DNA of 56,249 nucleotides from a virus, in IMG/VR virus record IMGVR_UViG_3300047472_000033, positions 1 through 56,249 of that record, one strand, 5' to 3'. The stretch's first letter is position 1. Every line of letters begins with the position of its first letter. Below are positions 35,432-52,628 of the stretch, in pieces. Made by a program: the position numbers and the translations under genes. Below the pieces are notes generated by a model. That model saw only the letters and a list, made by a program, of their open reading frames with translations, was not told the DNA's origin and made no database searches.

Positions 35432-36625
35432 ATGCTTAACCTATACGACCATCAGAAGGCTGCCATTGCCAAGATGGGGAATGGCAAGATCCTCTATGGC
35501 GATGTAGGTACTGGTAAGTCCCGCACGGCCGCGGGTTACTACCTGCAGAGGGAAGCGCCAAAGGACGTCTACGTGATCACGACAGCGAAGAAGAGGGATT
35601 CCCTCGACTGGGAGAACGAGTTCGCCATGGCCGGCGTGTTCACACATTCACGTGGACCTGTCGCCGGTAAGCTCACTGTCGATTCGTGGAACAACATCGC
35701 GAACTACAAGAACGTCCGCGGCGCTTTCTTCATCTTCGACGAGCAGAGACTCGTCGGCAGTGGTGCTTGGACAAAGGCCTTCGAATTCATAGCGAAACAC
35801 GGGAACAACTGGATCTTGTTGACAGCCACCCCCGGGGATAATTGGCTGGATTACATGTCCGTGTTCATCGCGAATGGGTTCTACAAGAACAGGACCGAGT
35901 TCAAGCAAGACCATGTGGTGTATGACACCTACGCGAAGTTCCCGAAGGTTAAGGGATACCTGAACGTGGGTAAGCTAGTCCGTCTGCGTGCGTCCATCAT
36001 GGTGCACATGCCGTTCGAGAGGCACACCACAAGGGCCACGCACGAGGTCGAAGTGCAGTTCGACGAAGTCATGATGAAGAGAGTCACCAGGGACCGCTGG
36101 AACCCCTATGAGGACCGGCCGATCAGATCCTTGGCCGAGTACTTCTACATCATGCGTAAGGTCGTCTACTCGCATCCTAGCCGGCTTCACTGGGTCCGCC
36201 AGACCATGGAGAAGCACCCCAAGCTCATCGTGTTCTACAACTTTGACTACGAGCTCGAGATCCTTCGGACGCTGTCCAAGGAAGTGCCGATGGCGGAGTG
36301 GAATGGGCACAAGCACGAAGAGATTCCGGACACGGATGAGTGGGTGTACTTGGTCCAGTACACCTCTGGGTCTGAAGGCTGGAACTGTACGTCTACAGAT
36401 GCGACGCTCTTCTACTCGATGACGTACTCGTACAAGCAGTGGCACCAGTCGCACGGACGCATCGATCGCCTCAACACCAAGTACACACTTCTGCACTACT
36501 ACACGTTGCTGTCAGAGGCAACAATCGACAAGGGGGTGAAGAAAGCATTGGGTGAGAAACGGAACTTCAACGAGTCAGTATTCGTCAAAAATGCGCTGCC
36601 TTTAGCCTACACCAAGGCGGCGTGA
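35432..36625 (+). CDS. Superfamily 2 DNA helicase (DEAD/SNF2-like)
   Basis: 397 residues. Helicase motifs in order: Q-like DHQKAAI near 6, motif I GDVGTGKS near 23, motif II FDEQ near 103, motif III LTATP near 130, motif V SGSEGWN near 311, motif VI QSHGRIDRLNT near 339. It is a compact two-RecA-domain SF2 translocase as found in many phages, where members help replication initiation, recombination or branch migration. It sits next to the repeat-rich putative origin, consistent with an initiation role. That role is inferred. Confidence 0.85.
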   Translation: MLNLYDHQKAAIAKMGNGKILYGDVGTGKSRTAAGYYLQREAPKDVYVITTAKKRDSLDWENEFAMAGVFTHSRGPVAGKLTVDSWNNIANYKNVRGAFFIFDEQRLVGSGAWTKAFEFIAKHGNNWILLTATPGDNWLDYMSVFIANGFYKNRTEFKQDHVVYDTYAKFPKVKGYLNVGKLVRLRASIMVHMPFERHTTRATHEVEVQFDEVMMKRVTRDRWNPYEDRPIRSLAEYFYIMRKVVYSHPSRLHWVRQTMEKHPKLIVFYNFDYELEILRTLSKEVPMAEWNGHKHEEIPDTDEWVYLVQYTSGSEGWNCTSTDATLFYSMTYSYKQWHQSHGRIDRLNTKYTLLHYYTLLSEATIDKGVKKALGEKRNFNESVFVKNALPLAYTKAA

Positions 36626-36654
36626 AAGAAGGGCCAAAAAGGTGGTATCACGAG

Positions 36655-36679
36655 GTCTTTACATTAGGCCAAACTAGGG
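36655..36679 (+). repeat. Iteron-like 25-bp repeat, copy 1
   Basis: Identical to 36784-36808. Core TTTACATTAGGCCAAACTAG. Confidence 0.85.
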
Positions 36680-36783
36680 TGTTTAGCGGCGAACTAGGAC
36701 AAACGCTATGCAGACTAGGACAAATTGGTATACCACCTTTTTGGCAACTTGCCAGTTATTTTTGGCAAGTGAGACGACCGGAC

Positions 36784-36808
36784 GTCTTTACATTAGGCCA
36801 AACTAGGG
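36784..36808 (+). repeat. Iteron-like 25-bp repeat, copy 2
   Basis: Identical to 36655-36679 at a spacing of 129 bases. Confidence 0.85.
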
Positions 36809-36992
36809 CGACTACGGACAAACCAGGGCGATCGCTACGTAAAGTAGGACATTTTGAAGAGGCGCCAGAAGCCCCTTGCCAAATAAGTGGCAAATCTTGC
36901 CAAACTGGCAAGCAAACTGGTATACCAAACTGTCCTTAAATGTCCGTTTCGTGATTTCTAAAACCGCAGGTCAGAGCGTTGCGCTGTTTTTG

Positions 36993-37014
36993 CTTGCCAG
37001 TTTGCCACTTTTTT
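36993..37014 (+). repeat. 22-bp perfect inverted repeat, left arm
   Basis: CTTGCCAGTTTGCCAC followed by six T; exact reverse complement of 37085-37106. The 70 bases between the arms are extremely A-rich (including A12), a plausible unwinding element. Confidence 0.85.
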
Positions 37015-37084
37015 TAGTATAAACTTTTGAAAAAAAAAAAAGAGGAACAGATACCGTACACGTTCATTTAAAAAGTTTTGCTCG

Positions 37085-37106
37085 AAAAAAGTGGCAAACT
37101 GGCAAG
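37085..37106 (-). repeat. 22-bp perfect inverted repeat, right arm
   Basis: Six A followed by GTGGCAAACTGGCAAG; exact reverse complement of 36993-37014. Confidence 0.85.
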
Positions 37107-37120
37107 CGATTTTTCGGCGT

Positions 37121-37144
37121 CCGTTTTGTCCTAATGTAAAGACC
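37121..37144 (-). repeat. Inverted iteron-like copy 3
   Basis: CCGTTTTGTCCTAATGTAAA carries the reverse complement of the TTTACATTAGG core (one change in the GGCC part). Confidence 0.75.
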
Positions 37145-37180
37145 AAAAACAGGCACCAGCGAGCAGGCAGCTCGAAATGT

Positions 37181-37203
37181 CCGTTTTGGCCTAATGTAAA
37201 GCC
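37181..37203 (-). repeat. Inverted iteron-like copy 4
   Basis: CCGTTTTGGCCTAATGTAAA is the exact reverse complement of TTTACATTAGGCCAAA plus flank. Copies 1-2 and 3-4 thus face each other across about 500 bases. Confidence 0.8.
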
Positions 37204-37227
37204 GCGCAATCAGAAAGTGAACCAAAC

Positions 37228-38103: not shown

Positions 38104-38715
38104 ATGAGTCTCGAAATCGTAAGGTTCGACGGATTCAACGCTCACTCAAGGCTAGACGGCTCACACGCCTTTCTCAGCCCCTCGAACTACCACTGGCTAA
38201 ACTACCCTCCAGACAAGCTCCTCGAGCGTCTAAGGACTGCTCAAGCTGCTTCTGAGGGTACCGAGCTCCATCTGCTTGCCGCGCTCAACATCAAGCACGG
38301 TACCAAGCTTATGGAGACAGACGAGAACAAGACGCTGTGGCTCTACGTCAACGACTGCATTCGATTCGGCATGTCACCCGAGCAGACCTTGTTCTACTCG
38401 ATGAACTGCTACGGTACGGCCGATGCTATCGGATTCGCACCAAACGAAGATGGCGAGAAGTACGCCGGCTACCTTCGCATCAGTGACCTGAAGACGGGTC
38501 TGACGAAGGCATCGGATAAGCAGCTCTACATCTACGCAGGGCTGTTCTGTCTGGAGTACGGCTACCTCCCGTATGAAATCGAAGGCGAACTCACCATCTA
38601 CCAGAACGGTCACCGAAACATCACTTTGATTGATCGGAACTTTCTGGCGTTCGTGTACGACAAGATCCAAACCTCACATGAGACCATCGAGAACTCGAAG
38701 GGAGGACTGCTGTGA
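38104..38715 (+). CDS. RecB/Cas4-like PD-(D/E)xK exonuclease
   Basis: 203 residues. Catalytic motifs GTADAIGF near 103, ISDLKTG near 127 (D-x-K) and QLYIYA near 140 (Q-x3-Y of the RecB family) are present and correctly spaced; a helical N-terminus carries an HLLAALNIKHG segment. No Fe-S Cys cluster is seen. It likely processes ends for recombination or replication together with the VRR-NUC protein upstream. Confidence 0.8.
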   Translation: MSLEIVRFDGFNAHSRLDGSHAFLSPSNYHWLNYPPDKLLERLRTAQAASEGTELHLLAALNIKHGTKLMETDENKTLWLYVNDCIRFGMSPEQTLFYSMNCYGTADAIGFAPNEDGEKYAGYLRISDLKTGLTKASDKQLYIYAGLFCLEYGYLPYEIEGELTIYQNGHRNITLIDRNFLAFVYDKIQTSHETIENSKGGLL

Positions 38716-41405
38716 TCATTGACGAAGAACATCGAGACGATCTAGTCATCGATGAAGAAGACCACCTCACGCATTACGGCATCCTCCGTAAGTCGGGTCG
38801 GTATCCATGGGGTTCTGGTGAAACTCCTCACGAGCGGGCCAACTCCTTCCTCGGTTACCTCAAGAGTTTCCGTAAAGAAGGAATGACCGACACTGAGATT
38901 GCTCATGCGTGGGGTATGACCACGTCTCAGCTTCGTGACACCGTCTCAATAGCGAATGAGGCGAAGAAGACTGCTGACATCGCTCAGGCTATGAAGCTGA
39001 AATATGATGTTGGCATGTCCAACGTCGCCATCGGTAAGAAGATGGGCATTGGCGAGTCCAGTGTTCGCTTGCTCCTGAAGCAGGGAGAAGCCGATAGGCA
39101 GCCGATTCTGGATACTACTGCTGAGATGCTTCGTCAAGAGGTAGCCAGCAAGAAGTACATCGATGTAGGTCGAGGCGTTGAGGTCCAACTTCACATCAGT
39201 GAGAAGAAGCTCAAGACCGCGGTCTCAGTCCTCAAGGAAGAGGGCTACAGCTTCCACTACATCCAAGTCCCCCAACTTGGAACCGGTAAGAAGACCAACA
39301 TAAAGGTGTTGTCTGCTCCGGGCACCACGTATGCCGAGGTCTCCAAGAACAAGGCTGAGATCAAGCAGATCCGTAAGAGCAGCCGAGATGGTGGTCGTTC
39401 TTACGATGAGATCCTTCCACCCATCTCGATCGATTCGAAAAGGGTCAAGGTTCGTTATGCCGAAGAAGGCGGAACTGATGCGGACGGCACGATCTATGTC
39501 CGCCCTGGCGTAAAAGACGTTTCCCTTGGAAGCGCCAAATATGCACAGGTTCGCATCGCTGTTGACGGTAGCCACTACCTCAAGGGTATGGCCCTCTACA
39601 GAGATGATCTGCCTGCCGGTGTAGACCTAGTGTTCAACACGAACAAGAAGAACACCGGGAATAAGCTGGATGCCATGAAGCCGATGAAGAAGGATCCTGA
39701 CGATCCTTTCGGTTCCATGATCGCTGACCAGCTCAAGGAGATGGGCCCTGATGGGAAGCTCCGCCCGAGTTCAGTAATGAACATCGTCAACCAGGAGGGC
39801 AACTGGGATGAGTGGTCCAAGACACTCTCGTCTCAGATGTTGTCGAAGCAGAAGCCTAGCCTTGCGGACCATCAGCTTGCGCTGACCCGTGAAGCCAAGC
39901 AGCGCGAGTTCGACACGATCATGAGTCTCACCAATGAGACCGTTAAGAAGCACCTTCTGGAGAAGTTCGCTGACGAGACTGATTCAGCTGCCGTTCACCT
40001 CAAGGCGGCGCACCTTCCTCGACAGAAGACGAAGGTAATACTTCCGATCAACTCGATGAAGGAAACCGAGATCTATGCACCGTCCTTCCGAGATGGTGAA
40101 AAAGTAGTTCTCGTTCGGTTCCCTCATGGACACATCTCTGAGATCCCTGAGCTCACCGTCAACAACCGTCACCCCGAAGCCAAGAAGATTCTTGGTAATG
40201 CACCTGATGCTGTCGGCATCCACCATGCGGTTGCCGAACGTCTCTCTGGTGCAGACTTCGATGGTGACACTGTACTTGTCATCCCGAACAACCTAGGCAA
40301 GGTCAGGAACAAGGCTCAGCTTGAGGAACTGAAGGGTTTCGATCCTCAGTCCGAATACAAGGGTTACCCTGGCATGCCCCAGATGACATCTCAGCAAAAG
40401 GGTAGTGAGATGGGGAAGGTTTCCAACCTCATCACGGACATGACTGCCCTTGGCGCACCTGACGCTGAGATCGCGCGAGCGCTCAAGCATTCCATGGTCG
40501 TCATCGATGCTGAGAAGCATGGGCTGGATTACAAGCGCTCTGCCATCGAGAATGGTATCCCAGCCCTGAAGAAGAAGTATCAGGGTGGTGCTACCAGAGG
40601 CGCTGCAACAATCGTGTCTAGGGCCAAGTCTACTGAGCGAGTGCTCGATAGAAAGCCCCGATCCGCCAAGGAAGGCGGACCGATTGACAGGGCTACTGGA
40701 AAACTGGTTTACACAGAGACCGGCGCTGAGTACACCAATGGCAACCCGAAGATGATCAAGTCTACGAAGCTTGCCGAAACGCACGATGCGCACACACTGG
40801 TTTCTGATCACCAGGCTCCTATCGAGAAGATCTATGCAGATCACTCGAACGCCCTTAAGAAGATGGCTAACGATGCGAGGTTGGCAACCCTCGACATCAA
40901 GGGAATCGTTCGCTCCCCCTCTGCCGCGAAAGCGTATGAGAAGGAAGTGAAGGATCTGGAAGCATCCCTCCAGGAGGCTCTCAGGAACGCCCCCTATGAG
41001 AGACAAGCCCAGCTCCTAGGTAACGCCATCTACCAGCTCAAGAAAGAATCGAATCCTGACCTGGACGATGCCGATCTGAAGAAGCTCAAGGCAAAGGCCA
41101 TTAAGGAAGCTCGTCTCAGGGTGGGTGCTGAAAAGCAGTCCATCGACATCACGCCCAAGCAATGGGAAGCCATCCAGGCTGGAGCTATCAGTAAGACACA
41201 GCTCGAGCACATCCTTGACAACACAGACGTGGACAAGATCAAGGAACTGGCTACACCTAGGGACAAGCCGGTTATGAGTGTGGCTGATAAGAACCGCGCT
41301 CTTCTCCTGCTTCGTGATGACAAGTACAGCCTTGCTGACGTGGCTGATCAGCTTGGTGTATCGGTGTCCACTCTAACTGCAGCCATGCGTGGTGATGCAG
41401 CATGA
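38712..41405 (+). CDS. YonO-like single-chain RNA polymerase candidate (DFDGD motif)
   Basis: 897 residues from GTG 38712 (GTGA overlap). The segment with LVRFPHGHISEIPE followed by HAVAERLSGADFDGDTVLVI matches the second double-psi beta barrel of the beta-prime RNA polymerase subunit, in which R-x-P, then N-ADFDGD binds catalytic Mg; the three Asp are residues 515, 517 and 519. Length and motif fit the YonO/crAss-like one-chain polymerases. The N-terminus has an LTHYGILRKSGRYPWGSGE tag-like stretch (19-37), then two predicted helix-turn-helix-like segments (MTDTEIAHAWGMTTSQLRD and SNVAIGKKMGIGESSVRLLL). A third similar HTH is at the C-terminus. Polymerase activity is inferred. Confidence 0.7.
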   Translation: MIIDEEHRDDLVIDEEDHLTHYGILRKSGRYPWGSGETPHERANSFLGYLKSFRKEGMTDTEIAHAWGMTTSQLRDTVSIANEAKKTADIAQAMKLKYDVGMSNVAIGKKMGIGESSVRLLLKQGEADRQPILDTTAEMLRQEVASKKYIDVGRGVEVQLHISEKKLKTAVSVLKEEGYSFHYIQVPQLGTGKKTNIKVLSAPGTTYAEVSKNKAEIKQIRKSSRDGGRSYDEILPPISIDSKRVKVRYAEEGGTDADGTIYVRPGVKDVSLGSAKYAQVRIAVDGSHYLKGMALYRDDLPAGVDLVFNTNKKNTGNKLDAMKPMKKDPDDPFGSMIADQLKEMGPDGKLRPSSVMNIVNQEGNWDEWSKTLSSQMLSKQKPSLADHQLALTREAKQREFDTIMSLTNETVKKHLLEKFADETDSAAVHLKAAHLPRQKTKVILPINSMKETEIYAPSFRDGEKVVLVRFPHGHISEIPELTVNNRHPEAKKILGNAPDAVGIHHAVAERLSGADFDGDTVLVIPNNLGKVRNKAQLEELKGFDPQSEYKGYPGMPQMTSQQKGSEMGKVSNLITDMTALGAPDAEIARALKHSMVVIDAEKHGLDYKRSAIENGIPALKKKYQGGATRGAATIVSRAKSTERVLDRKPRSAKEGGPIDRATGKLVYTETGAEYTNGNPKMIKSTKLAETHDAHTLVSDHQAPIEKIYADHSNALKKMANDARLATLDIKGIVRSPSAAKAYEKEVKDLEASLQEALRNAPYERQAQLLGNAIYQLKKESNPDLDDADLKKLKAKAIKEARLRVGAEKQSIDITPKQWEAIQAGAISKTQLEHILDNTDVDKIKELATPRDKPVMSVADKNRALLLLRDDKYSLADVADQLGVSVSTLTAAMRGDAA

Positions 41406-41653: not shown

Positions 41654-41658
41654 CAAGT

Positions 41659-41750
41659 CGGAGATCAGACGAAGTCAAGGCTCGTTAATCAGACGTCACA
41701 AGGCGTCGCGGGCCAACCTCTCGGGCAAAGAGAACTTCGTCTGATCTCCG
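41659..41750 (+). ncRNA. Long-stem structured RNA or DNA element
   Basis: Perfect 17-bp arms CGGAGATCAGACGAAGT and ACTTCGTCTGATCTCCG enclose 58 bases with room for two small hairpins (GACG...CGTC and CTCT...AGAG), giving a branched structure. ATCAGACG is repeated inside the loop, offering alternative pairing. No T run follows at once, so it is not a simple terminator. It could be an RNA processing signal, a regulatory RNA or part of the packaging site. Confidence 0.5.
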
Positions 41751-41796
41751 GCTGTCACCAGGTACATGGGTCGCAACTTTTTGTCTAAAAAATCTT

Positions 41797-41816
41797 GAGA
41801 CCGGGGGAGGGGTCTC
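41797..41816 (+). promoter_or_regulatory. GAGACC/GGTCTC hairpin or operator
   Basis: GAGACC, eight G/A bases, GGTCTC. It includes GGGGTCTC, eight bases of the complement of the cassette leader motif, and may be recognised by the same factor. Confidence 0.4.
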
Positions 41817-41985
41817 GCAAAATCAGACCCCCCTCTGCATCGCCGCCCTCCATATTTTTCCCCCGGCGGGAATTTTCGCCAAAACTTTTTGACCCCGAGG
41901 CATCACCCCAGTGAAACGAGCTAACGTGAAGCCCCTGTAACCCCGGGATTACTTGTCATGAACCCATCGAAAGGGGGTGTGATCC

Positions 41986-43855: not shown

Positions 43856-44236
43856 GTGGCACAGAGCATTCTAGACACTACCAAGAAGACCGTAGGTCTT
43901 TCTTCAGATGATGACAGCTTTGATGACGACATCGTGATGCACATCAACACAGCTCTGTCAACTCTGAACCAACTGGGGATAGGCCCAACTGAGGGCTTCG
44001 AGGTAGAAGACTCCTCGGCCACGTGGGACGACTTCCTTGGCGGTGACAAGCGCCTCAACTTCGTAAAGACGTACGTCTACCTCCGAGTACGTCTCGTGTT
44101 CGACCCATGGCAAACCTCATTCGTCATCGACTCGATGAACAAGCAGATCCAAGAGCTTGAGTGGCGGATGAACGTCCTCAGGGAAGGAGAAGCATGGACG
44201 GATCCAACCGTTCCCGTATCCGTTCCGGCAGTCTGA
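43856..44236 (+). CDS. Head-tail connector protein (gp6-like)
   Basis: 126 residues from GTG 43856, eight bases after GGAGGTG (a GTG at 43847 lies inside the ribosome site). DDDIVMHINTALSTLNQLGI, then FVKTYVYLRVRLVFDPWQTS and a C-terminal helix match the phage gp6-like connector fold. It normally sits below the portal; here the gene lies upstream of the large terminase. It overlaps the next gene by 43 bases. Confidence 0.75.
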   Translation: MAQSILDTTKKTVGLSSDDDSFDDDIVMHINTALSTLNQLGIGPTEGFEVEDSSATWDDFLGGDKRLNFVKTYVYLRVRLVFDPWQTSFVIDSMNKQIQELEWRMNVLREGEAWTDPTVPVSVPAV

Positions 44237-44706
44237 CCCACTATGGCGTCAAGGGTATGAAGTGGGGTGTGACTCACAACCCGTCAGGGGGTGGCTCAGG
44301 TTCCCGATCTCGTGCTTCCGAAGATGCCAAGGCAGTTGCCGTAGCAACCCGCAAGATTGAGACTCACGGCACCAATGCCCTGAGCAACAAGGAACTTCAG
44401 AACGTCATCTCTCGGATGAATCTGGAGAACCAGTACCACAAGCTGACGACCGAGAACAATGACTACCTCGATCATGGTCTGGCAGCATCCAAGAAGGTCC
44501 TCAAGATCGGTAAGACGATCGAGGAGGCTCGGAAGTTCTTGGAGACTCCAACTGGTCAGGCAGTCAAGACCGGTGTCCTGGCTTCACTCACAGCAATCAA
44601 GGTGGCAGCCGCCTTCAAGACTGGTGGAGCTTCCGCCGCCGCTACCAAGGGCGCCTCGATCGTCATTCGTAAAGCGGCGAACCACTACACCAACGTAGGG
44701 AACTAG
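44194..44706 (+). CDS. Tag-bearing virion-module protein 1 (HYGVKGMKWGV)
   Basis: 170 residues from ATG 44194 with AAGGAGAAG upstream. Residues 14-26 are LTHYGVKGMKWGV, the motif shared with four more proteins at 46477-48700. After a Gly/Ser/Arg linker comes a helical body (RKIETHGTNALSNKELQNVI, LENQYHKL) and a hydrophobic segment near 128-150 (VLASLTAIKVAAAFKTGG), possibly membrane-active. Candidate internal head protein ejected with DNA; function unknown. Confidence 0.65.
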   Translation: MDGSNRSRIRSGSLTHYGVKGMKWGVTHNPSGGGSGSRSRASEDAKAVAVATRKIETHGTNALSNKELQNVISRMNLENQYHKLTTENNDYLDHGLAASKKVLKIGKTIEEARKFLETPTGQAVKTGVLASLTAIKVAAAFKTGGASAAATKGASIVIRKAANHYTNVGN

Positions 44707-44721
44707 AAGGGAGGGTAGACG

Positions 44722-46464
44722 ATGGCTCTGTCGAACACAGCAACTCCGACTTATTACGGTCGGTTTCGTGAAGCGGTGATTCGTGGCGAGATACCCGTCA
44801 ATCGGGAAATCTCACTGGAGATGAACCGTATCGACGCACTCATCGCCAACCCGAACATCTATTACGATCCCGATCCGGTGGAAGGGTTTGTTCTTTATTG
44901 TGAGAGCGAACTAACCCTGACCGACGGAAGTGATCTTCACCTCCTCGATACCTTTAAGTTGTGGGCCGAGCAGATTTTCTGCTGGTACTACTTCGTCAAT
45001 AGAAGCGTCTATGAGCCTCTTCCAGACAATCGGGGAGGTATTTACGTAGACAAGGTGATCAAGAAGCGCCTAACTACGAAGCAGTATCTCATCGTGGCAC
45101 GAGGTTCAGCCAAGTCGCTGTATGAGTCATGTCTGCAGAGTTATTTCCTAAACGTAGACACCTCAACCACCCACCAGATCACGACAGCCCCCACCATGAA
45201 GCAGGCCGAAGAGGTGATGTCACCCATTCGTACTGCGATCACTAGAAGTCGTGGACCTCTGTTTGCATTTTTGACAGAAGGATCACTTCAGAACACAACT
45301 GGGTCAAGAGCGAACAGAGTTAAGCTCGCTGCGACCAAGAAGGGTGTCGAAAACTTCCTCACAGGATCGATGCTCGAAGTCCGACCGATGACAATCAACA
45401 AGCTTCAGGGTCTAAGGACCAAGGTTGCCACGGTCGACGAGTGGTTGTCTGGTGATCTACGTGAGGATGTTATTGGTGCCATCGAACAGGGTGCCTCGAA
45501 GCTCGATGACTACCTTATTGTAGCCGTTAGCTCAGAGGGAACTGTTCGTAACGGCAGCGGTGACACCATCAAGCTTGAGCTTGCCGACATTCTCAAGGGT
45601 AAGTACCAGGCGCCCCATATCTCGATCTGGCACTACAAGCTAGACGAGTTGGAAGAAGTCGCCAATCCGGCGATGTGGCCAAAAGCAAACCCCAACCTCG
45701 GGAAGACCGTCACCTATGACGTATACCAACTCGATGTTGAACGCGCCGAGAAAGCCCCAGCTGCTAGGAACGACATCCTGGCAAAGCGCTTTGGAATCCC
45801 GATGGAGGGCTACACGTACTTCTTTACGTACGAGGAAACTCTCCCTCACCCTCGGTCGTGGTTCGATGGCATGCCTTGTGCTCTCGGTGCAGACCTTTCC
45901 CAGGGTGATGACTTCTGTGCTTTCACATTCCTCTTCCCACTGCAGGAAGGGTTTGGAGTAAAGACCAGGAGCTACATCACTTCGTTGACTTTGTCCAAGC
46001 TTCCAGGAGCTATGCGTCATAAGTACGACGACTTCATCAATGAAGGAAGCCTTCATGTACTCGAGGGAACAATCCTCGACATGATGGAGGTCTATGAGGA
46101 CCTGGATGAATTCATCCAGCACTCTAACTATGATGTGCGCGCATTTGGTTTCGACCCTTACAACGCTAAGGAGTTCGTAGCCCGCTGGGAAGCGGAGAAC
46201 GGGCCATACGGCATCGAGAAGGTTATTCAGGGGGCGCGAACAGAGTCTGTCCCGCTTGGGGAACTCAAGGCTCTGAGTGGTGCACGATTGCTCTACTTTG
46301 ATCAAGCGTTGATGACATTCGCGATGGGTAATGCCATCACGATGGAAGACACAAACGGCAACCGAAAGCTTCTCAAGAAGCGACAGGACGCCAAGATCGA
46401 CAATGTAGCTGCCATGATGGACGCATTTATTGCGTTCAAACTCAACAAGGAGGCGTTTGGGTGA
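44722..46464 (+). CDS. terL: Terminase large subunit
   Basis: 580 residues. ATPase: Walker A-like VARGSAKS near 125 (deviant), Walker B VATVDEW near 234, with a preceding TAPTMKQAEEV Q-like helix. Nuclease domain: GADLSQGDDFCAF near 390 (first catalytic Asp), GFDPYNAKEF near 478, and DAKIDNVAAMMDA near the end (third Asp). This is the HK97-type Terminase_1 pattern. It cuts concatemers and pumps DNA into procapsids. Flanked on both sides by HYGVKGM-tagged genes. Confidence 0.95.
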   Translation: MALSNTATPTYYGRFREAVIRGEIPVNREISLEMNRIDALIANPNIYYDPDPVEGFVLYCESELTLTDGSDLHLLDTFKLWAEQIFCWYYFVNRSVYEPLPDNRGGIYVDKVIKKRLTTKQYLIVARGSAKSLYESCLQSYFLNVDTSTTHQITTAPTMKQAEEVMSPIRTAITRSRGPLFAFLTEGSLQNTTGSRANRVKLAATKKGVENFLTGSMLEVRPMTINKLQGLRTKVATVDEWLSGDLREDVIGAIEQGASKLDDYLIVAVSSEGTVRNGSGDTIKLELADILKGKYQAPHISIWHYKLDELEEVANPAMWPKANPNLGKTVTYDVYQLDVERAEKAPAARNDILAKRFGIPMEGYTYFFTYEETLPHPRSWFDGMPCALGADLSQGDDFCAFTFLFPLQEGFGVKTRSYITSLTLSKLPGAMRHKYDDFINEGSLHVLEGTILDMMEVYEDLDEFIQHSNYDVRAFGFDPYNAKEFVARWEAENGPYGIEKVIQGARTESVPLGELKALSGARLLYFDQALMTFAMGNAITMEDTNGNRKLLKKRQDAKIDNVAAMMDAFIAFKLNKEAFG

Positions 46465-46476
46465 GGAGGTTTAGTA

Positions 46477-46842
46477 ATGGCCCACATCATCGCTGACAAC
46501 ACCGAGATCTTCCACTATGGCGTCAAGGGTATGCACTGGGGAGTTCGGAGAGAAGAGAAAGCCGCCCAGAAGAATGCTCGTAGAGTCGCCAAGGGCGGTG
46601 AACTCGTTCGAAAGGCCCAGTCCAAGGGAATCAAGAACCCAGCAGCTGCTATCGCTCTGCGTGGAGCTGGTGAGGTAGGCGTTATCCTCTTCACCGGAAC
46701 CAAGATCTCCAACGCCATATCCAACCAGAACGCCAGGAACGGGGCTCACATCGTCAAACTCGCCCTCGCTGGCAAGGTTGGAGCGACTCGTATCGGAGAA
46801 ATCCGGGCGGTCAACGCATACAACAAGCAGAACGCGGGGTAG
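46477..46842 (+). CDS. Tag-bearing virion-module protein 2 (HYGVKGMHWGV)
   Basis: 121 residues. Residues about 13-25 carry FHYGVKGMHWGVRREEK. The body is basic with two hydrophobic stretches (AAIALRGAGEVGVILFTGTK, VKLALAGKVGATRIGE), which suggests a membrane-interacting or DNA-associated internal virion protein. GAGGAGG ribosome site. Function unknown. Confidence 0.62.
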   Translation: MAHIIADNTEIFHYGVKGMHWGVRREEKAAQKNARRVAKGGELVRKAQSKGIKNPAAAIALRGAGEVGVILFTGTKISNAISNQNARNGAHIVKLALAGKVGATRIGEIRAVNAYNKQNAG

Positions 46843-46845
46843 ACG

Positions 46846-47547
46846 GTGTCAAGCACCGACCTGACCCACCATGGCATCAAAGGGATGCATTGGGGAGTCC
46901 GTAAGGACGAACAAGTATCTGGTCGATTCGCAGGTCCCGGACCCGAAGTAGACGCGGCCCTTCACGAGTCCACGAAAGTAGCCGCTACAAAAGTGGCTGC
47001 TCTGATCGGTGACCGGTACGATTTTCGTATCCGGAAAGTCATTGCCATGGGACCCGGTCATCCTGAGTATGAAGCAGGAACCATGGGTTTCGTCCAGAAC
47101 ACCGGCAAACAAAAGGCCGAAGGCGAAATTCTCGTAACCGTGGATGATACTCGTCCTGCTCTGAAGAAGTGCGAGAAGGTGAAGTGGGTCGGTAAAGGCT
47201 GCGGAACTACCGAAGCTTTTCTCACCCACGAAGCTGGTCATGCCATCTTCCATTCTCGTGAGTACTACAAAAAAGACGGAACAATTGGTGGCGGGAACAT
47301 CGAGGCCCGTATGAAGGCCATGCAGGCCGCCTTTGATCAGTCTGAAAAAGACGGTATACCGGAAAGAAAGTTCATGTCCTCGATCTCGGGTTATGCGCGC
47401 CATGGTGCGAATAAAGAAGAAGTCGAAGCTGAACTGTTTTCTCAATACCACTGGGGTACGAATCCCCCGGAGTTCGTAAAGGTGTGGGGTCAAACCCTCC
47501 ACAATGAGTTGGGTATTGATGGTACTCCATTCAAAGAGAGGGGGTAA
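46846..47547 (+). CDS. Tag-bearing zincin-like metalloprotease (HHGIKGMHWGV + HEAGH)
   Basis: 233 residues from GTG 46846. LTHHGIKGMHWGV at 6-18 is the shared tag. A central domain contains LTHEAGHAIFH (zinc motif HEAGH, residues 128-132) and, about 70 residues later, SGYARHGANKEEVEAELFSQYHW, where E in a GANxEExxAE context is the usual third ligand of zincins. A tagged protease in this position could process virion proteins or be injected to act on the host. Activity and targets are inferred. Confidence 0.68.
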   Translation: MSSTDLTHHGIKGMHWGVRKDEQVSGRFAGPGPEVDAALHESTKVAATKVAALIGDRYDFRIRKVIAMGPGHPEYEAGTMGFVQNTGKQKAEGEILVTVDDTRPALKKCEKVKWVGKGCGTTEAFLTHEAGHAIFHSREYYKKDGTIGGGNIEARMKAMQAAFDQSEKDGIPERKFMSSISGYARHGANKEEVEAELFSQYHWGTNPPEFVKVWGQTLHNELGIDGTPFKERG

Positions 47548-47549
47548 CC

Positions 47550-48122
47550 ATGTACAAGACACCAGGTTTTGTCACGCCGTTCTCATATTCTTCGGAGGAA
47601 GAACTCGATGCAGATCTCAAACGACGTGGTGAAGCTTCTGGATCCACGCCGTTCGAAGTTTCCTATTCCGAAGGAAAGGGAATCAAGCACCACGGTGTCA
47701 AGGGCATGCACTGGGGAGTTCGAAAGAACACTCCTACCAATGCCAACTACGCCAAGTCTCAGCAGAGATACGACCGTAACAACGTCGGCAAGGGCGGCGT
47801 CAAGCGCATCAACAGGCGCATGAACAAGGGCATGGACATCAAGTCCGCCCGTAAGGCTGAGTTCACCTTCCGAGGTAGGCGAGCCTCCGCTCTTGTTGCC
47901 TCTGCTGCAATCGCCAAGATGGCTTACATGTACGGACCTACGATCAAGACCATCCTTCAGATGGTCGGCGGAGTAGCAGCCCAGTCGGTAGCCAAGCGAG
48001 CTGAAACGAACCGTGGTCGAGCCGCTGCGGCAAATGCCAGAGGGATCCCGAGGATGGGTTCTTCCGGTCCGAGCTATGCCAAGAAGAAGCGTAGCGGAGC
48101 CTACAACATCTCGTCGATCTAG
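47550..48122 (+). CDS. Tag-bearing virion-module protein 4 (HHGVKGMHWGV)
   Basis: 190 residues. A 48-residue lead (MYKTPGFVTPFSYSSEEELD onward) precedes the tag KHHGVKGMHWGVRKNTP at about 50. The rest is very basic (RRMNKGMDIKSARKAEFTFR) with one hydrophobic stretch (MAYMYGPTIKTILQMVGGVA). Likely DNA-bound in the head. Function unknown. Confidence 0.62.
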   Translation: MYKTPGFVTPFSYSSEEELDADLKRRGEASGSTPFEVSYSEGKGIKHHGVKGMHWGVRKNTPTNANYAKSQQRYDRNNVGKGGVKRINRRMNKGMDIKSARKAEFTFRGRRASALVASAAIAKMAYMYGPTIKTILQMVGGVAAQSVAKRAETNRGRAAAANARGIPRMGSSGPSYAKKKRSGAYNISSI

Positions 48123-48145
48123 CCCCCGGAGGGAGGCTACTCAAG

Positions 48146-48700
48146 TTGTACACAGTCAAGGGAACGCCGCCCTCTAGTGATCTCACACACTATGGTGTCA
48201 AAGGGATGCACTGGGGCGTTCGTCGCGATGGTCCTGAAGGCGTACCTGGTAGAACCAACCGAGAAGCCAAGAAGGATGCCAAGGAATTCGCTCGAGCCAA
48301 GCAGTTCTATGGTGAAGGCGCCGGCACCCGACGCAAGCTGATCAAGGCCACAGTCGAGGGTAAGAGTCGACGGAGTCCTTACTACAAGAAGGCCTTCGAC
48401 CACCACCTCGAAAGGCAGGACACATCCAAGCACGCCGCCAAGGCTCAGAGCGAGCGTAAGCGGAAGAACATCAAGAAGAGCACCGGTCGAGGAATTCGTG
48501 GAACTCGCCACATCCTCAACGGTAATTCTCAGTACGCCTCTGCAGTAACAGCCATTGCAGTCGGTGGGGCTTTGTACGCTCACAAGACCGGTATTGACAA
48601 GATCGTGTTCAATGCCGGAAAGACTGCAGTCAAGAAGCTCCGAGACCCCAATGGGATCAAGCGAGCTCAGGATCTGCTCAAGGGCATGGGAATCGGCTGA
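48146..48700 (+). CDS. Tag-bearing virion-module protein 5 (HYGVKGMHWGV)
   Basis: 184 residues from a TTG start, supported by a strong GGAGGGAGG site. DLTHYGVKGMHWGVRRDG at about 12-29, then a Lys/Arg-rich body (NREAKKDAKEFARAKQFYGE, KRKNIKKSTGRGIRG) and a hydrophobic segment (YASAVTAIAVGGALYAHK). The TTG start may keep its dose low. Function unknown. Confidence 0.62.
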   Translation: MYTVKGTPPSSDLTHYGVKGMHWGVRRDGPEGVPGRTNREAKKDAKEFARAKQFYGEGAGTRRKLIKATVEGKSRRSPYYKKAFDHHLERQDTSKHAAKAQSERKRKNIKKSTGRGIRGTRHILNGNSQYASAVTAIAVGGALYAHKTGIDKIVFNAGKTAVKKLRDPNGIKRAQDLLKGMGIG

Positions 48701-48736: not shown

Positions 48737-50083
48737 ATGGCAGGTTTGCTATCAAGAGTAGCCGGAACCTTGGCGCATAGTTGGAATCTGTTCAAGGACC
48801 AAAACTACCTGAATGGGCTGCACTCCCATGATCAGGGATCAGGCTTCTCTTCAATGCCCCACAGGAGTCGGTCCTACTATTCGACTGAGCGATCGATCAT
48901 ATCATCGATCCACACTCGGATGAGTATCGACGTCGCGGCAATCGACATTCGACACGTTCGGCTGGACGAGCAGGGCCGCTATCTTGAGGACATGGGCAGC
49001 AGTCTTCAGGACTGTCTGACGGTCGAAGCAAACCTCGACCAGGGAGCTCGGCAATTTCGTCAGGACATAGTGATGACGCTCTTCGAAAGGGGGCACGCCG
49101 CTATCGTCCCTGTCGATACCGATATCGATCCCTCGGAATCGGCCGGGTACATCATCCAATCGATGCGAGTGGGACACGTGGTCGGCTGGTTCCCCCGGCA
49201 TGTTCGGGTGAGTCTATACGACGACAGAACCGGTCAGCGCAAGGAAGCAACCGTTCCGAAGTCGATGTGTGCCATCGTCGAGAACCCGCTTTACTCGGTG
49301 ATGAACGAGCCGAATTCGACTCACAAGAGGCTTATTCACAAGCTCAACATGCTGGACACTATGGACGAGCAAACCAGTTCCGGTAAGCTCGACATGGTCA
49401 TTCAGCTTCCTTACGTTGTCAAGTCTGAAGCCCGCCGGCAGCAGGCCGAACAGCGTCGTAAGGATCTCGAATTCCAGCTGAAGGGCAGTCAGTACGGCAT
49501 TGCCTACACCGATGGAACCGAGAAGATCACCCAGCTCAACCGTCCGGTAGAGAACAACCTGCTCAAGCAGATCGAATACCTGACGGACCAGTTGTACGTA
49601 CAGCTGGGGCTGACCCCTGAAGTAATGAACGGCACGGCTGACGAAAAGGCCATGCTGAACTACTTCAACCGAACGGTCGAACCAATCGTTCAGGCGATAT
49701 CTGAAGCCATGAAGCGCACCTTCCTGACCAAGACGGCCAGGACTCAAAGGCAGTCGATCATGTACTTCCGCGACCCGTTCAAGCTTGTTCCGATGGAACA
49801 GCTCGCCGAAATCGTTGACAAGTTCACTCGGAACGAGGTTCTCTCCTCGAATGAAATCCGAGCAGCGATCGGTATCAGGCCCTCGAAGGACCCGAAGGCT
49901 GATCAGCTCGTCAACAGCAACATGCCACAACCACCCCCTACTGATGGTGGGGACGTCAGCGCACCGATGGATGATGGATCGGACCTGGCATCGGATGGCG
50001 GTGACGCTATCCAGAGTGGTCTTGATGATCTAAACGGAATCGTTGATTCGATCTTTGCAGATCTTGGCATCGAAGATGGATGA
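48737..50083 (+). CDS. Portal protein
   Basis: 448 residues. SGFSSMPHRSRSYYSTERSI, then a DVAAIDIRHVRLDEQGRYLE beta region, the long clip/stem helices (QQAEQRRKDLEFQL), the motif QLGLTPEVMNGTADEKAMLN and a C-terminal crown helix, as in HK97/SPP1-type portals. The last about 45 residues are acidic and Asp/Gly-rich. The 3' end overlaps the next gene by eight bases. Confidence 0.9.
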   Translation: MAGLLSRVAGTLAHSWNLFKDQNYLNGLHSHDQGSGFSSMPHRSRSYYSTERSIISSIHTRMSIDVAAIDIRHVRLDEQGRYLEDMGSSLQDCLTVEANLDQGARQFRQDIVMTLFERGHAAIVPVDTDIDPSESAGYIIQSMRVGHVVGWFPRHVRVSLYDDRTGQRKEATVPKSMCAIVENPLYSVMNEPNSTHKRLIHKLNMLDTMDEQTSSGKLDMVIQLPYVVKSEARRQQAEQRRKDLEFQLKGSQYGIAYTDGTEKITQLNRPVENNLLKQIEYLTDQLYVQLGLTPEVMNGTADEKAMLNYFNRTVEPIVQAISEAMKRTFLTKTARTQRQSIMYFRDPFKLVPMEQLAEIVDKFTRNEVLSSNEIRAAIGIRPSKDPKADQLVNSNMPQPPPTDGGDVSAPMDDGSDLASDGGDAIQSGLDDLNGIVDSIFADLGIEDG

Positions 50084-50600
50084 GGAATTCCTCTTTCATG
50101 ACTACGACGCTGCCAAGCGACGTGAGTACTACCTGAAGAATCGTAAACTGAAGGGCCGTAAGCACGGTTCCCCTCAGATAGCGACCCACCCAAAGAAGAC
50201 GAGAGCACAGCTAAGCCAAGAGCATCAGAAGAGGCTCGAAGCTCAGGTAGGCCAACTCAAGGCTCGCCTGGAGAAGCTCAAGGCTGCTTTGGAACTTCTG
50301 GTCAAGCAAGCTAAGGCCCGGAGCGGGGTCAAGGACACTACCTCTAAAGCAAAAGCCGCTGAACGGAAAGCCAAGGCTACCCCGACTACGGCCGCGCAGA
50401 AGAAGGCAGATTCCAAACCTCGCCATTTGACGGCTGCTCAGAAGCTCGCTGAAGAGAAGGCCCAGGCAAAGTACCGGAGTAAGAACGAACAGCTCTCAGT
50501 TGAGGTCAAATCTCTGACCGACAAGATCAAGACTATTCAAGAGCGCATCGCAAAGATGAAGAAGTCCGGCTCTCTCGGAGCCAGGGACACCAAACATTAG
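50076..50600 (+). CDS. Basic coiled-coil protein (scaffold- or head-associated)
   Basis: 174 residues from ATG 50076, overlapping the portal stop; the longer reading from 50043 lies in the portal gene. The start MDEEFLFHDYDAAKRREYYL with KNRKLKGRKHG is a short motif I have seen on head-module proteins of other phages and may be a second tag type. The rest is Lys/Ala/Gln-rich coiled coil (LEAQVGQLKARLEKLKAALE). Position between portal and protease-capsid suggests scaffold or internal DNA-binding protein. Confidence 0.55.
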   Translation: MDEEFLFHDYDAAKRREYYLKNRKLKGRKHGSPQIATHPKKTRAQLSQEHQKRLEAQVGQLKARLEKLKAALELLVKQAKARSGVKDTTSKAKAAERKAKATPTTAAQKKADSKPRHLTAAQKLAEEKAQAKYRSKNEQLSVEVKSLTDKIKTIQERIAKMKKSGSLGARDTKH

Positions 50601-50621: not shown

Positions 50622-52628
50622 ATGGCAGTAAAGGAAGCTGACTTCGGCGGCTGGGCCACCAAGGTGGGTCTCAAGTGCACCGATGGTCGGACCATCATGC
50701 GCGGTGCTTTCCAGCACATGGACCAGCAGCAGGTCCCGCTCGTCTACCAGCACGGGCACAACGACATCAAGAACGTTCTCGGCCACGCCATCCTCGAGCA
50801 CCACGACGAGGGTGTCTACGCCTACGCGTTCTTCAACGAGACGCCGCAGGGCCAGAACGCCAAGGCCATGGTCAAGCACCGTGACCTCAAGCACCTGTCC
50901 ATCTACGCCAACAACCTGACCGAGACGAACAAGAACGTCACCCACGGCAACATCCGTGAGGTCAGTCTCGTTCTCGCCGGCGCCAATCCCGGCGCTGTGA
51001 TCGACTTCGTCAACATTCGTCACGGTGACGGCTCCCTCAGCGAGCTGGAAGACGAGGCGGTTATCCACACCGGACTCGAGCTCGACCACGCTCTCGACGC
51101 GGATGACGATGACCTCGAGCACTCCGACGAGACGGACGACGACCTCGAGCACGCCGACGGTCAGGACATGTCGGTCCAGGACGTCATCGACGGCATGACC
51201 GAAGAGCAGAAGAACGTCATGTACTACGTGGTCGGCACCGCCGTCGACAACGCCCTGGCAGAAGCCCAGCACTCCGACGACCAGCCCGGTTCGGGCACCA
51301 TCACCCACCAGGAAGGAGCCGACAGCATGTCGCGCAACGTGTTCGACCAGGACCAGGCCAACGAGGCCGAGAAGAAGCACGAGCTGACCCACGACGCCAT
51401 GAAGGGCATCTTCGCCGACGCCGTCAAGCGCGGCTCTCTGAAGGCAGCGGTCGAGGCCTACGCCCAGGAGCACCTCGAGCACGGCATCACCAACATCGAC
51501 GTGCTGTTCCCGGACGCCAAGGCGGCCACGGGTGCCATCGAGCTGGACAAGCGCCGCACCGAGTGGGTCTCGAACGTCCTCAACGGCACCCGCCACACCC
51601 CGTTCTCCCGGATCAAGACCTTCACGGCTGACCTGACCCAGGACGAGGCCCGCGCCAAGGGCTACATCAAGGCCCAGTACAAGCTGGAAGAGTGGTTCGG
51701 CGTCACCAAGCGCACCACCGGCCCGACCACGATCTACAAGAAGCAGAAGCTCGACCGTGACGACATGCTCGACATCACGGACTTCGACATCGTCGCCTTC
51801 CTCAACGCCGAGATGCGTCTCATGCTGGAGGAGGAGGCCGCCCGCGCGATCCTCATCGGTGACGGTCGTCAGATCACCGACGCGGACAAGGTCAAGGACC
51901 CGATGGGTGCCTCGAGCGGCGACGGCGTCCGTTCGATCCTGAACGACCACGAGCTCTTCGTCACCACGCTGCTCGTGAACGTCGACGACGCCAACTCCAC
52001 CTACGACGAGGTCGTGGACGCCGTCATGGACGGCATGGAGTTCTACAAGGGCACCGGCACGCCGACCTTCTACACCACCATCCCGCAGCTCAACAAGTTC
52101 CTGAAGGCCAAGGACCTCCAGGGCCGGCGTCTCTACGCCAACAAGGGTGAGGTCGCCGACGCGCTGGGCGTCAAGGACATCGTCACCGTCGAGCCGATGA
52201 AGCAGATCACGGACCTCGTGGGCATCATCGTCAACCTGGACGACTACAACGTCGGTACGGACCAGGGCGGAGAGATCAACCTCTTCGACTTCTTCGACAT
52301 CGACTACAACCAGCAGAAGTACCTGATGGAGACCCGCATGTCGGGCGCTCTCGTCCGGCCGAAGGCTGCTCTGGTCATCCGCAAGACCGCTGCGGCCAAC
52401 GTCCTCGTCACCCCGACCAAGCCGACGTTCGTAGCGGCCACGGGTGTTGTCACGATCCCGACCGTCACCGGCGTGGTCTACAAGGGCAACGATGGCACGA
52501 CCACCCTGACCGCTGGCGCGCAGACCGCCCTCGCGTCCGGTGCGTCGACCACTGTCTACGCTGTCGCGGCGGCCGGCTACTACTTCGCCGACAACCAGAG
52601 CGACTCCTGGATCTTCAAGCGTCCGTAA
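50622..52628 (+). CDS. Capsid maturation protease fused to major capsid protein, with C-terminal decoration domain
   Basis: 668 residues. Residues about 1-130 are an HK97-type prohead protease (YQHGHND near 42-48, LKHLSIYAN near 89-97 with the likely nucleophile S93, REVSLVLAGANPGA near 112). About 135-235 is a very acidic linker, a probable scaffold/delta region with an internal ATG at 51327. About 236-597 is the HK97-fold capsid (NGTRHTPFSRIKTFTADLTQ and MLDITDFDIVAFLNAEMRLM). About 598-668 is an Ig-like end also present on the tail tube at 53269. Very GC-rich codons suggest high expression. The mature capsid should be released by self-cleavage. Confidence 0.88.
   Translation: MAVKEADFGGWATKVGLKCTDGRTIMRGAFQHMDQQQVPLVYQHGHNDIKNVLGHAILEHHDEGVYAYAFFNETPQGQNAKAMVKHRDLKHLSIYANNLTETNKNVTHGNIREVSLVLAGANPGAVIDFVNIRHGDGSLSELEDEAVIHTGLELDHALDADDDDLEHSDETDDDLEHADGQDMSVQDVIDGMTEEQKNVMYYVVGTAVDNALAEAQHSDDQPGSGTITHQEGADSMSRNVFDQDQANEAEKKHELTHDAMKGIFADAVKRGSLKAAVEAYAQEHLEHGITNIDVLFPDAKAATGAIELDKRRTEWVSNVLNGTRHTPFSRIKTFTADLTQDEARAKGYIKAQYKLEEWFGVTKRTTGPTTIYKKQKLDRDDMLDITDFDIVAFLNAEMRLMLEEEAARAILIGDGRQITDADKVKDPMGASSGDGVRSILNDHELFVTTLLVNVDDANSTYDEVVDAVMDGMEFYKGTGTPTFYTTIPQLNKFLKAKDLQGRRLYANKGEVADALGVKDIVTVEPMKQITDLVGIIVNLDDYNVGTDQGGEINLFDFFDIDYNQQKYLMETRMSGALVRPKAALVIRKTAAANVLVTPTKPTFVAATGVVTIPTVTGVVYKGNDGTTTLTAGAQTALASGASTTVYAVAAAGYYFADNQSDSWIFKRP

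What the first reader, a model, noticed from the sequence alone, without database searches (positions are those of the whole stretch)
44194..48700. Five clustered proteins share an HYGVKGMxWGV tag; the RNA-polymerase-like protein starts with a related motif
Products at 44194, 46477, 46846, 47550 and 48146 all carry H-(Y/H)-G-(V/I)-KGM-(K/H)-WGV near the N-terminus followed by unrelated, mostly basic bodies, while 38712 carries LTHYGILRKSGRYPWGSGE. A common short motif on otherwise unrelated proteins in the head module behaves like a sorting signal, perhaps for packing into the procapsid via portal, scaffold or protease. The tagged RNA polymerase would then be an injected virion enzyme as in crAss-like phages, next to a tagged protease. 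This may be an undescribed cargo-loading system.
Basis: partly seen in the sequence, partly recalled or inferred. Interest (0 to 1): 0.88.

Follow-up and report, generated by a model that had tools for sequence, protein, structure and literature searches.

The report
Address tag for loading phage heads
A large group of bacteria-infecting viruses puts the same short amino-acid tag on many otherwise unrelated proteins, most likely as an address label that gets RNA polymerase and host-takeover enzymes packed into the virus head for injection, which would explain a protein family catalogued so far only as 'unknown function'.

Summary
Five ORFs around the terminase and portal genes carry L-x-H-[YH]-G-[VI]-K-G-M-x-W-G. 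This is Pfam DUF7211 (PF23847), function unknown; shuffled DNA gives no matches. The RNA polymerase carries the variant LTHYGILRKSGRYPWGSG. The tag is widespread: 279 tagged ORFs in viral contigs, on about 100 unrelated body clusters, 160/160 upstream of a fused protease–capsid gene on the same strand. Nearly every gene between terminase and portal is tagged (37/39). Bodies include 2H phosphoesterases, GNAT acetyltransferases, papain-fold deamidase toxins and an HExxH protein. Tags, tagged polymerase and protease–capsid fusion occur in the same phages. In Lactococcus phage 1706 the depositors labelled both the tagged polymerase (orf75) and the doubly tagged orf7 'structural protein', so tagged proteins are probably in virions. 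AlphaFold2 leaves the tags disordered. The tag's L-x-H core recurs in the scaffold-like linker of the protease–capsid fusion (5.6-fold enriched) and at its capsid junction (39/42), suggesting recognition by the maturation protease. Best reading: a capsid-loading sequence functionally like T4's, in an unrelated phage lineage. That the tag causes packaging is inferred, as is the receptor.

The parts
38766..38822 (+). Variant tag LTHYGILRKSGRYPWGSGE at residues 19-37 of the RNA polymerase
   Evidence: all 124 SGRYPWGSG ORFs found in viral contigs are this polymerase
38712..41405 (+). Tagged single-subunit two-barrel RNA polymerase (DFDGD), 897 aa
   Evidence: phrog_4291 E=0; AF2 model matches QDE-1 (E 2.7e-8) and Thermus phage P74 gp62 (E 1.1e-6)
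44161..44706 (+). Tagged ORF 1 (tag 44233-44274), just before the terminase gene
   Evidence: DUF7211 1.5e-9; phrog_11022
44722..46464 (+). Terminase large subunit (landmark, untagged)
   Evidence: phrog_9 2.7e-109
46477..46842 (+). Tagged ORF 2 (tag 46507-46548)
   Evidence: DUF7211 1.1e-9
46846..47547 (+). Tagged ORF 3 (tag 46861-46902), HExxH peptidase-like cargo
   Evidence: DUF7211 1.3e-9; HEAGH; homologs in 13 phages, some called peptidase/protease; fold not identified
47550..48122 (+). Tagged ORF 4 (tag 47682-47723)
   Evidence: DUF7211 2.4e-7; phrog_34327
48146..48700 (+). Tagged ORF 5 (tag 48182-48223)
   Evidence: DUF7211 4.9e-11; phrog_6291 4.4e-74
48737..50083 (+). Portal protein (landmark, untagged)
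   Evidence: Phage_portal 6.5e-19
50043..50600 (+). Lysine-rich, scaffold-like small gene whose N-terminus carries L-x-H (EEFLFHDYDAAKRREYYLK)
   Evidence: in Count and Paella the N-terminus reads NFLAHY/DFIAHY like the cargo tags of the same phage
50622..52628 (+). Protease (S78) + linker + major capsid protein fusion; proposed tag receptor
   Evidence: Peptidase_S78 1.3e-6 and Phage_capsid 6.7e-7; phrog_3270 4.5e-244
51015..51482 (+). Linker with repeated [LIV]-x-H-[SAG]-[DE] motifs, ending in the junction LEH before GITNIDVLFPDAK
   Evidence: L/I two residues before H enriched 5.6x in 38 linkers; junction L-x-H in 39 of 42 fusions

Best explanation
The tag is a capsid-loading (capsid-targeting) sequence. 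Late in infection, proteins bearing L-x-H-[YHF]-G-[VI]-K-G-M-x-W-G (accessory effectors) or L-x-H-Y-G-x(4)-SGRYPWGSG (the phage RNA polymerase) dock by this flexible tag inside the growing procapsid. They stay in the mature head and are ejected with the DNA, so that the polymerase and host-manipulating enzymes act at once. The docking partner is most likely the protease-linker-capsid fusion, present in every capsid subunit. The tag resembles that protein's own recurring L-x-H motifs and its L-x-H..G-[IV] capsid junction, so tagged cargo would bind as substrate-like peptides and may be cleaved after L-x-H. Shown: tag, its modular spread, gene position, co-occurrence, disorder, L-x-H sharing, and the 'structural protein' labels of two tagged proteins in phage 1706. 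Inferred: that the tag causes packaging, that cargo is injected, and which protein is the receptor.
For: (1) In the original deposit of Lactococcus phage 1706 (EU081845) the tagged polymerase orf75 and doubly tagged orf7 are both 'structural protein'. The label also sits on orf62 and orf71 in the replication region, so it probably reflects virion proteomics. (2) 279 tagged ORFs fall into 100 body clusters after masking the tag; only 18 of 344 same-locus pairs have related bodies. (3) 160/160 tagged ORFs lie upstream of the protease-capsid fusion on the same strand; 197/199 lie before the portal gene; 37/39 genes between terminase and portal are tagged. (4) Matching phage counts for tag, tagged polymerase and fusion (Arthrobacter 95, Gordonia 55, Streptomyces 54, Curtobacterium 7). 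In IMG/VR records picked by one feature: fusion 40/40, polymerase 14/17, tag 20/23. In six bacterial genomes 16 of 17 tag hits lie within 10 kb of the prophage's fusion gene. (5) Effector-like bodies: 2H phosphoesterase, GNAT, papain-fold toxin, HExxH. (6) Tags have pLDDT below 50 in both models. (7) Tags within a phage resemble each other more than tags between phages. (8) L-x-H is shared with linker and capsid junction.
Against: No experiment shows that the tag directs packaging. The 1706 paper could not be read, so the method behind its labels is inferred. Co-occurrence could be plain common descent of one head module. Two genes between terminase and portal lack the tag (Count gp13, Paella gp17). 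Internal and repeated tags do not look like a removable leader. The residues after L-x-H (KGMxWG) are the most conserved, which a pure cleavage site would not require. Copy numbers, injection and cleavage are untested.
Confidence: 0.77

Rival explanations
1. The tag does load cargo into the head, but the receptor is the portal or the scaffold-like small protein, not the protease-capsid fusion.
For: Cargo genes sit between terminase and portal. In crAss001 a cargo protein binds the portal inside the capsid (PMC10172136). The small gene carries an L-x-H N-terminus like the tags.
Against: Lactococcus phage 1706 has no gene between portal and fusion, so the small protein cannot be the general receptor. 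L-x-H motifs concentrate in the fusion's linker and junction.
Confidence: 0.28
2. The tag sorts proteins inside the infected cell (to terminase, to a replication site or to the polymerase) and has nothing to do with the virion.
For: No direct packaging experiment; the polymerase is also tagged.
Against: Two tagged proteins of phage 1706, the polymerase among them, are labelled structural. Tagged genes are confined to the late head cluster.
Confidence: 0.07
3. The repeat is selected as DNA, as a recombination site that lets cargo genes be swapped, and the shared peptide is a by-product.
For: Cargo is patchy: the peptidase occurs in 11 of 54 Streptomyces and 2 of 95 Arthrobacter phages.
Against: Synonymous codons vary freely at conserved residues, e.g. 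all four glycine codons and both lysine codons, and the frame is kept on unrelated bodies.
Confidence: 0.03
4. The tag is the start of one conserved globular domain shared by all tagged proteins.
For: DUF7211 is filed as a family, and some PHROG profiles align beyond the tag.
Against: 100 unrelated body clusters; only tag columns are conserved in alignments of 76 and 145 proteins; tag disordered in models.
Confidence: 0.02

Closest known systems
Capsid targeting sequence (CTS) of T4 internal proteins IPI-IPIII and Alt (PMC3012670, PMC7411985, PMC12373910)
   Same: Short leader-like sequence as the only thing shared by highly diverse, swappable, virion-packaged effector proteins of one phage group.
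   Different: Other head lineage (HK97-type fusion of protease and capsid protein), other sequence, sometimes internal or repeated, and also on an RNA polymerase; cleavage and targeting not demonstrated here.
Virion RNA polymerases of crAss-like phages and Thermus phage P23-45 (PMC10172136, PMC10770324)
   Same: Two-barrel single-polypeptide polymerase with DFDGD; in phage 1706 labelled a virion protein.
   Different: Separate tagged protein of about 900 aa, not fused to a giant cargo or tape-measure protein; injection not shown.
Pfam DUF7211 (PF23847)
   Same: The five tags are members by score.
   Different: Pfam gives no function; the polymerase variant is not matched.
Prohead protease motif of SPN3US (AxE) and of T4 gp21 (PMC7411985)
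   Same: A three-residue x-containing motif found in capsid propeptides and in ejected cargo alike.
   Different: Here the triplet is L-x-H and cleavage is only a prediction.

Membership tests
Pfam DUF7211 (PF23847) | Profile score above the curated cut-off of 27 bits | tested here: met
   Five window proteins at 30.4-42.3 bits; the RNA polymerase is not matched
T4-type capsid targeting sequence (functional class) | Short N-terminal sequence shared by otherwise unrelated proteins | tested here: met
   100 unrelated body clusters; about 80% lie within 60 codons of the preceding stop, but internal and repeated copies exist
T4-type capsid targeting sequence (functional class) | Bearers are present in mature virions | tested here: inconclusive
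   Depositors' label 'structural protein' for tagged orf7 and orf75 of phage 1706; underlying paper not available
T4-type capsid targeting sequence (functional class) | Sequence directs a foreign protein into the prohead and is cut by the prohead protease | not testable with these tools
   Needs reporter fusion and N-terminal mapping
T4 CTS proper (homology) | T4-type head proteins as the context of the sequence | tested here: not met
   The head is an HK97-type S78 protease plus Phage_capsid fusion; works like, is not a member
T4 CTS proper (homology) | Direct sequence similarity to the T4 CTS | not tested
   No T4 CTS was fetched and compared
Two-barrel single-subunit RNA polymerases | DxDxD catalytic signature and two-barrel fold | tested here: met
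   Invariant DFDGD; Foldseek to QDE-1 2.7e-8 and P74 gp62 1.1e-6
Virion RNA polymerases | Packaged and injected | tested here: inconclusive
   1706 orf75 labelled structural protein; injection not testable

The most novel reading that the evidence does not exclude
The tag is a mimic of the capsid protein's own maturation site. The protease domain carried by every capsid subunit is the cargo receptor, so that hundreds of protease sites capture L-x-H-tagged effectors and the polymerase and release them by cleavage at maturation. This would be a cargo-loading principle not described before.
Probability: 0.35. Interest if true: 0.88.

Novelty: new variant of a known kind. Interest (0 to 1): 0.77.

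Why it matters
It would give a function to DUF7211 and turn every tagged gene into a predicted packaged effector, readable from sequence alone in more than 240 isolate phages and in prophages of gut bacteria. The predicted cargo (2H phosphoesterases, acetyltransferases, papain-fold deamidases, peptidases, an RNA polymerase) looks like an injected host-takeover or counter-defence kit. A short portable tag would also be a tool for loading proteins into siphophages of Gram-positive hosts, as the T4 sequence is for T4.

Tried and rejected
Chance: none in shuffles. Common fold: rejected. DNA-level repeat: rejected by free synonymous variation. Fold of the HExxH protein: AF2 from only four sequences was weak (mean pLDDT 65.5) and Foldseek found nothing. 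PDB sequence search with the polymerase profile hit only helix-turn-helix and designed proteins; with the capsid fusion nothing relevant. Literature: no hit for the motif letters or for DUF7211; Garneau et al. 2008 not held. Portal L-x-H (LKHAWNAF) was considered as a further copy of the element and set aside, because several relatives lack the His.
Full report
What is there. The window is an IMG/VR virus record of 56,249 bases, related to Streptomyces phages such as Scarif and Rima. Five ORFs around the terminase gene carry L-x-H-[YH]-G-[VI]-K-G-M-[KH]-W-G-V (the second has I-F-H, the fourth I-K-H), and the polymerase gene at 38712 starts with ...LTHYGILRKSGRYPWGSGE. The five tags are Pfam DUF7211, a 25-residue family of unknown function, all above its cut-off. 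The corresponding DNA pattern occurs five times in the window and never in 100 shuffles.

How general it is. In the loci fetched there are 279 tagged ORFs. With the tag masked their bodies fall into 100 clusters at E 1e-4 (one large single-linkage cluster of 148, and 86 singletons). 68 loci have more than one tagged ORF, always on one strand. Column conservation in alignments of 76 and 145 representatives is confined to the tag. Consensus over 274 tags: L 85% at -2, H 100%, [YHF], G 100%, [VI], K 86%, G 99%, M 87%, K 74%, W 100%, G 100%, V 83%, R 86%; H, G, W and G at 100% are partly fixed by the search pattern.

Where the genes are. Of 160 tagged ORFs in loci that contain the protease-capsid fusion, all 160 lie upstream of it on the same strand (median 3.2 kb). 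Of 199 with terminase and portal visible, 93 lie just before terminase, 104 between terminase and portal and 2 after the portal. In ten annotated phages plus the window, 36 of 39 genes between terminase and portal carry the tag as annotated. A 37th (Scarif gp11) does so once its start is placed upstream of the annotated one. In six bacterial genomes of 2.2-6.9 Mb every tag hit but one lies within 10 kb of the prophage's fusion gene; the exception is 43 kb away.

What travels together. By tblastn the tag, the polymerase tag region and the protease-capsid fusion give matching phage counts (Arthrobacter 95, Gordonia 55, Streptomyces 54, Curtobacterium 7). Records of at least 38 kb chosen only by the tag contain the fusion in 17/17 and the polymerase in 14/17. 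Records chosen only by the polymerase tag contain the fusion in 23/23 and DUF7211 in 20/23. All six bacterial genomes have all three. Common descent of one head module could produce this too, so it supports linkage but does not prove function.

What the cargo is. Pfam on tagged proteins finds papain-fold toxin 1 / glutamine deamidase (9 proteins), 2'-5' RNA ligase / LigT phosphoesterase (up to 8) and GNAT acetyltransferase (at least 6). In three checked cases the deamidase domain follows the tag. In 14 proteins two HxTL motifs of a 2H phosphoesterase precede the tag, so the tag can stand on either side of a domain. Window ORF 3 has HEAGH; its relatives occur in 13 phages, patchily. Neighbouring Streptomyces phages hold other tagged cargo in the same slot: acetyltransferase in TaidaOne and LibertyBell, peptidase in ClubPenguin.

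Is it in virions. The original GenBank deposit of Lactococcus phage 1706 labels orf75 'structural protein'. That is the 1,029-aa polymerase with N-terminal LQHYGTKRHSGRYPWGSGD and DFDGD. It also so labels orf7, which has two tags (LQHRGVIGMRWG, LLHKGVKGMKWG). RefSeq now names orf75 'RNA-dependent RNA polymerase'. Because orf62 and orf71 in the replication region bear the same label, I infer it came from virion proteomics; the paper is not held here.

Polymerase. The AlphaFold2 model (mean pLDDT 78) matches QDE-1 and Thermus phage P74 gp62, i.e. the two-barrel family. That family includes the virion polymerases of crAss-like phage phi14:2 and P23-45 (PMC10770324). Residues 1-43, which include the tag, are below pLDDT 50; so are residues 1-29 of ORF 3. 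All 124 SGRYPWGSG ORFs found are this polymerase.

The L-x-H element. In 38 protease-capsid fusions the linker is rich in [LIV]-x-H-[SAG]-[DE]: L or I stands two residues before H 182 times against 32 expected, while the capsid domain (0.69x) and tagged bodies (0.72x) show no excess. 39 of 42 fusions have an L-x-H-like triplet within nine residues of the capsid N-arm (e.g. YALQHGIDNIE, FLSHAGTYGIDDID); in 36 it is followed by G-[IVLT]. The small gene before the fusion starts with the same element, NFLAHY in Count and DFIAHY in Paella, next to cargo tags DFLAHYGV in those phages. Known prohead proteases all cut a propeptide off the capsid protein, and SPN3US uses A-x-E in capsid and ejected proteins alike (PMC7411985). 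L-x-H is therefore a plausible cleavage or docking element, and the tag may be a copy of the capsid junction. This is inference.

Co-evolution. Tags of one locus resemble each other more than tags of different loci at most variable positions (z up to 16), although their bodies are unrelated. This fits a phage-specific receptor; lineage bias or copying of tags is not excluded.

Comparison. It works like the T4 capsid targeting sequence, where diverse internal proteins share only that sequence (PMC3012670) and are injected inhibitors of host defences (PMC12373910). It is not a member, because the head lineage differs. I rate it a new variant of a known kind.

Noticed in passing
window 36622-37205: Non-coding cluster of repeats: TTTACATTAGGCCAAA twice direct and twice inverted, CTAGGACAAA iterons and a 41-nt inverted repeat; looks like a replication origin or regulatory region about 1.5 kb upstream of the polymerase gene.
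   Followed up: partly
window 41654-41960: G+C-rich stretch without a clear gene between the gene after the polymerase and the genes that start relatives' genomes; probably the genome end, so the window appears circularly permuted.
   Followed up: partly
L007:8765-10477 and 13 similar ORFs: 2H phosphoesterase domains fused in front of the tag, annotated 'RNA ligase' or 'phosphoesterase'; some phage 2H enzymes degrade defence nucleotides, so these are candidates for packaged counter-defence enzymes (the function is from general knowledge, not tested).
   Followed up: no
L015:4977-6578, L082:2295-3668, L095:2037-3206: Tagged proteins ending in a papain-fold toxin 1 (glutamine deamidase) domain above Pfam's cut-off.
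   Followed up: no
L019:1-5552: A 5.5-kb viral contig with eight matches to the tag pattern, the densest array seen.
   Followed up: no
L337:5477-5971, L338:997-1503: Published gene starts in Scarif gp11 and TaidaOne gp7 fall inside the tag (annotated proteins start MKWGVRR); the frame upstream contains the full tag, so the starts look miscalled.
   Followed up: yes
L245:37083-40172: RefSeq names phage 1706 orf75 'RNA-dependent RNA polymerase' where the depositors wrote 'structural protein', hiding the hint that it is in the virion.
   Followed up: yes
L008:18335-20767: The linker of the Paella protease-capsid fusion contains several tandem copies of an L-x-H bearing segment.
   Followed up: no
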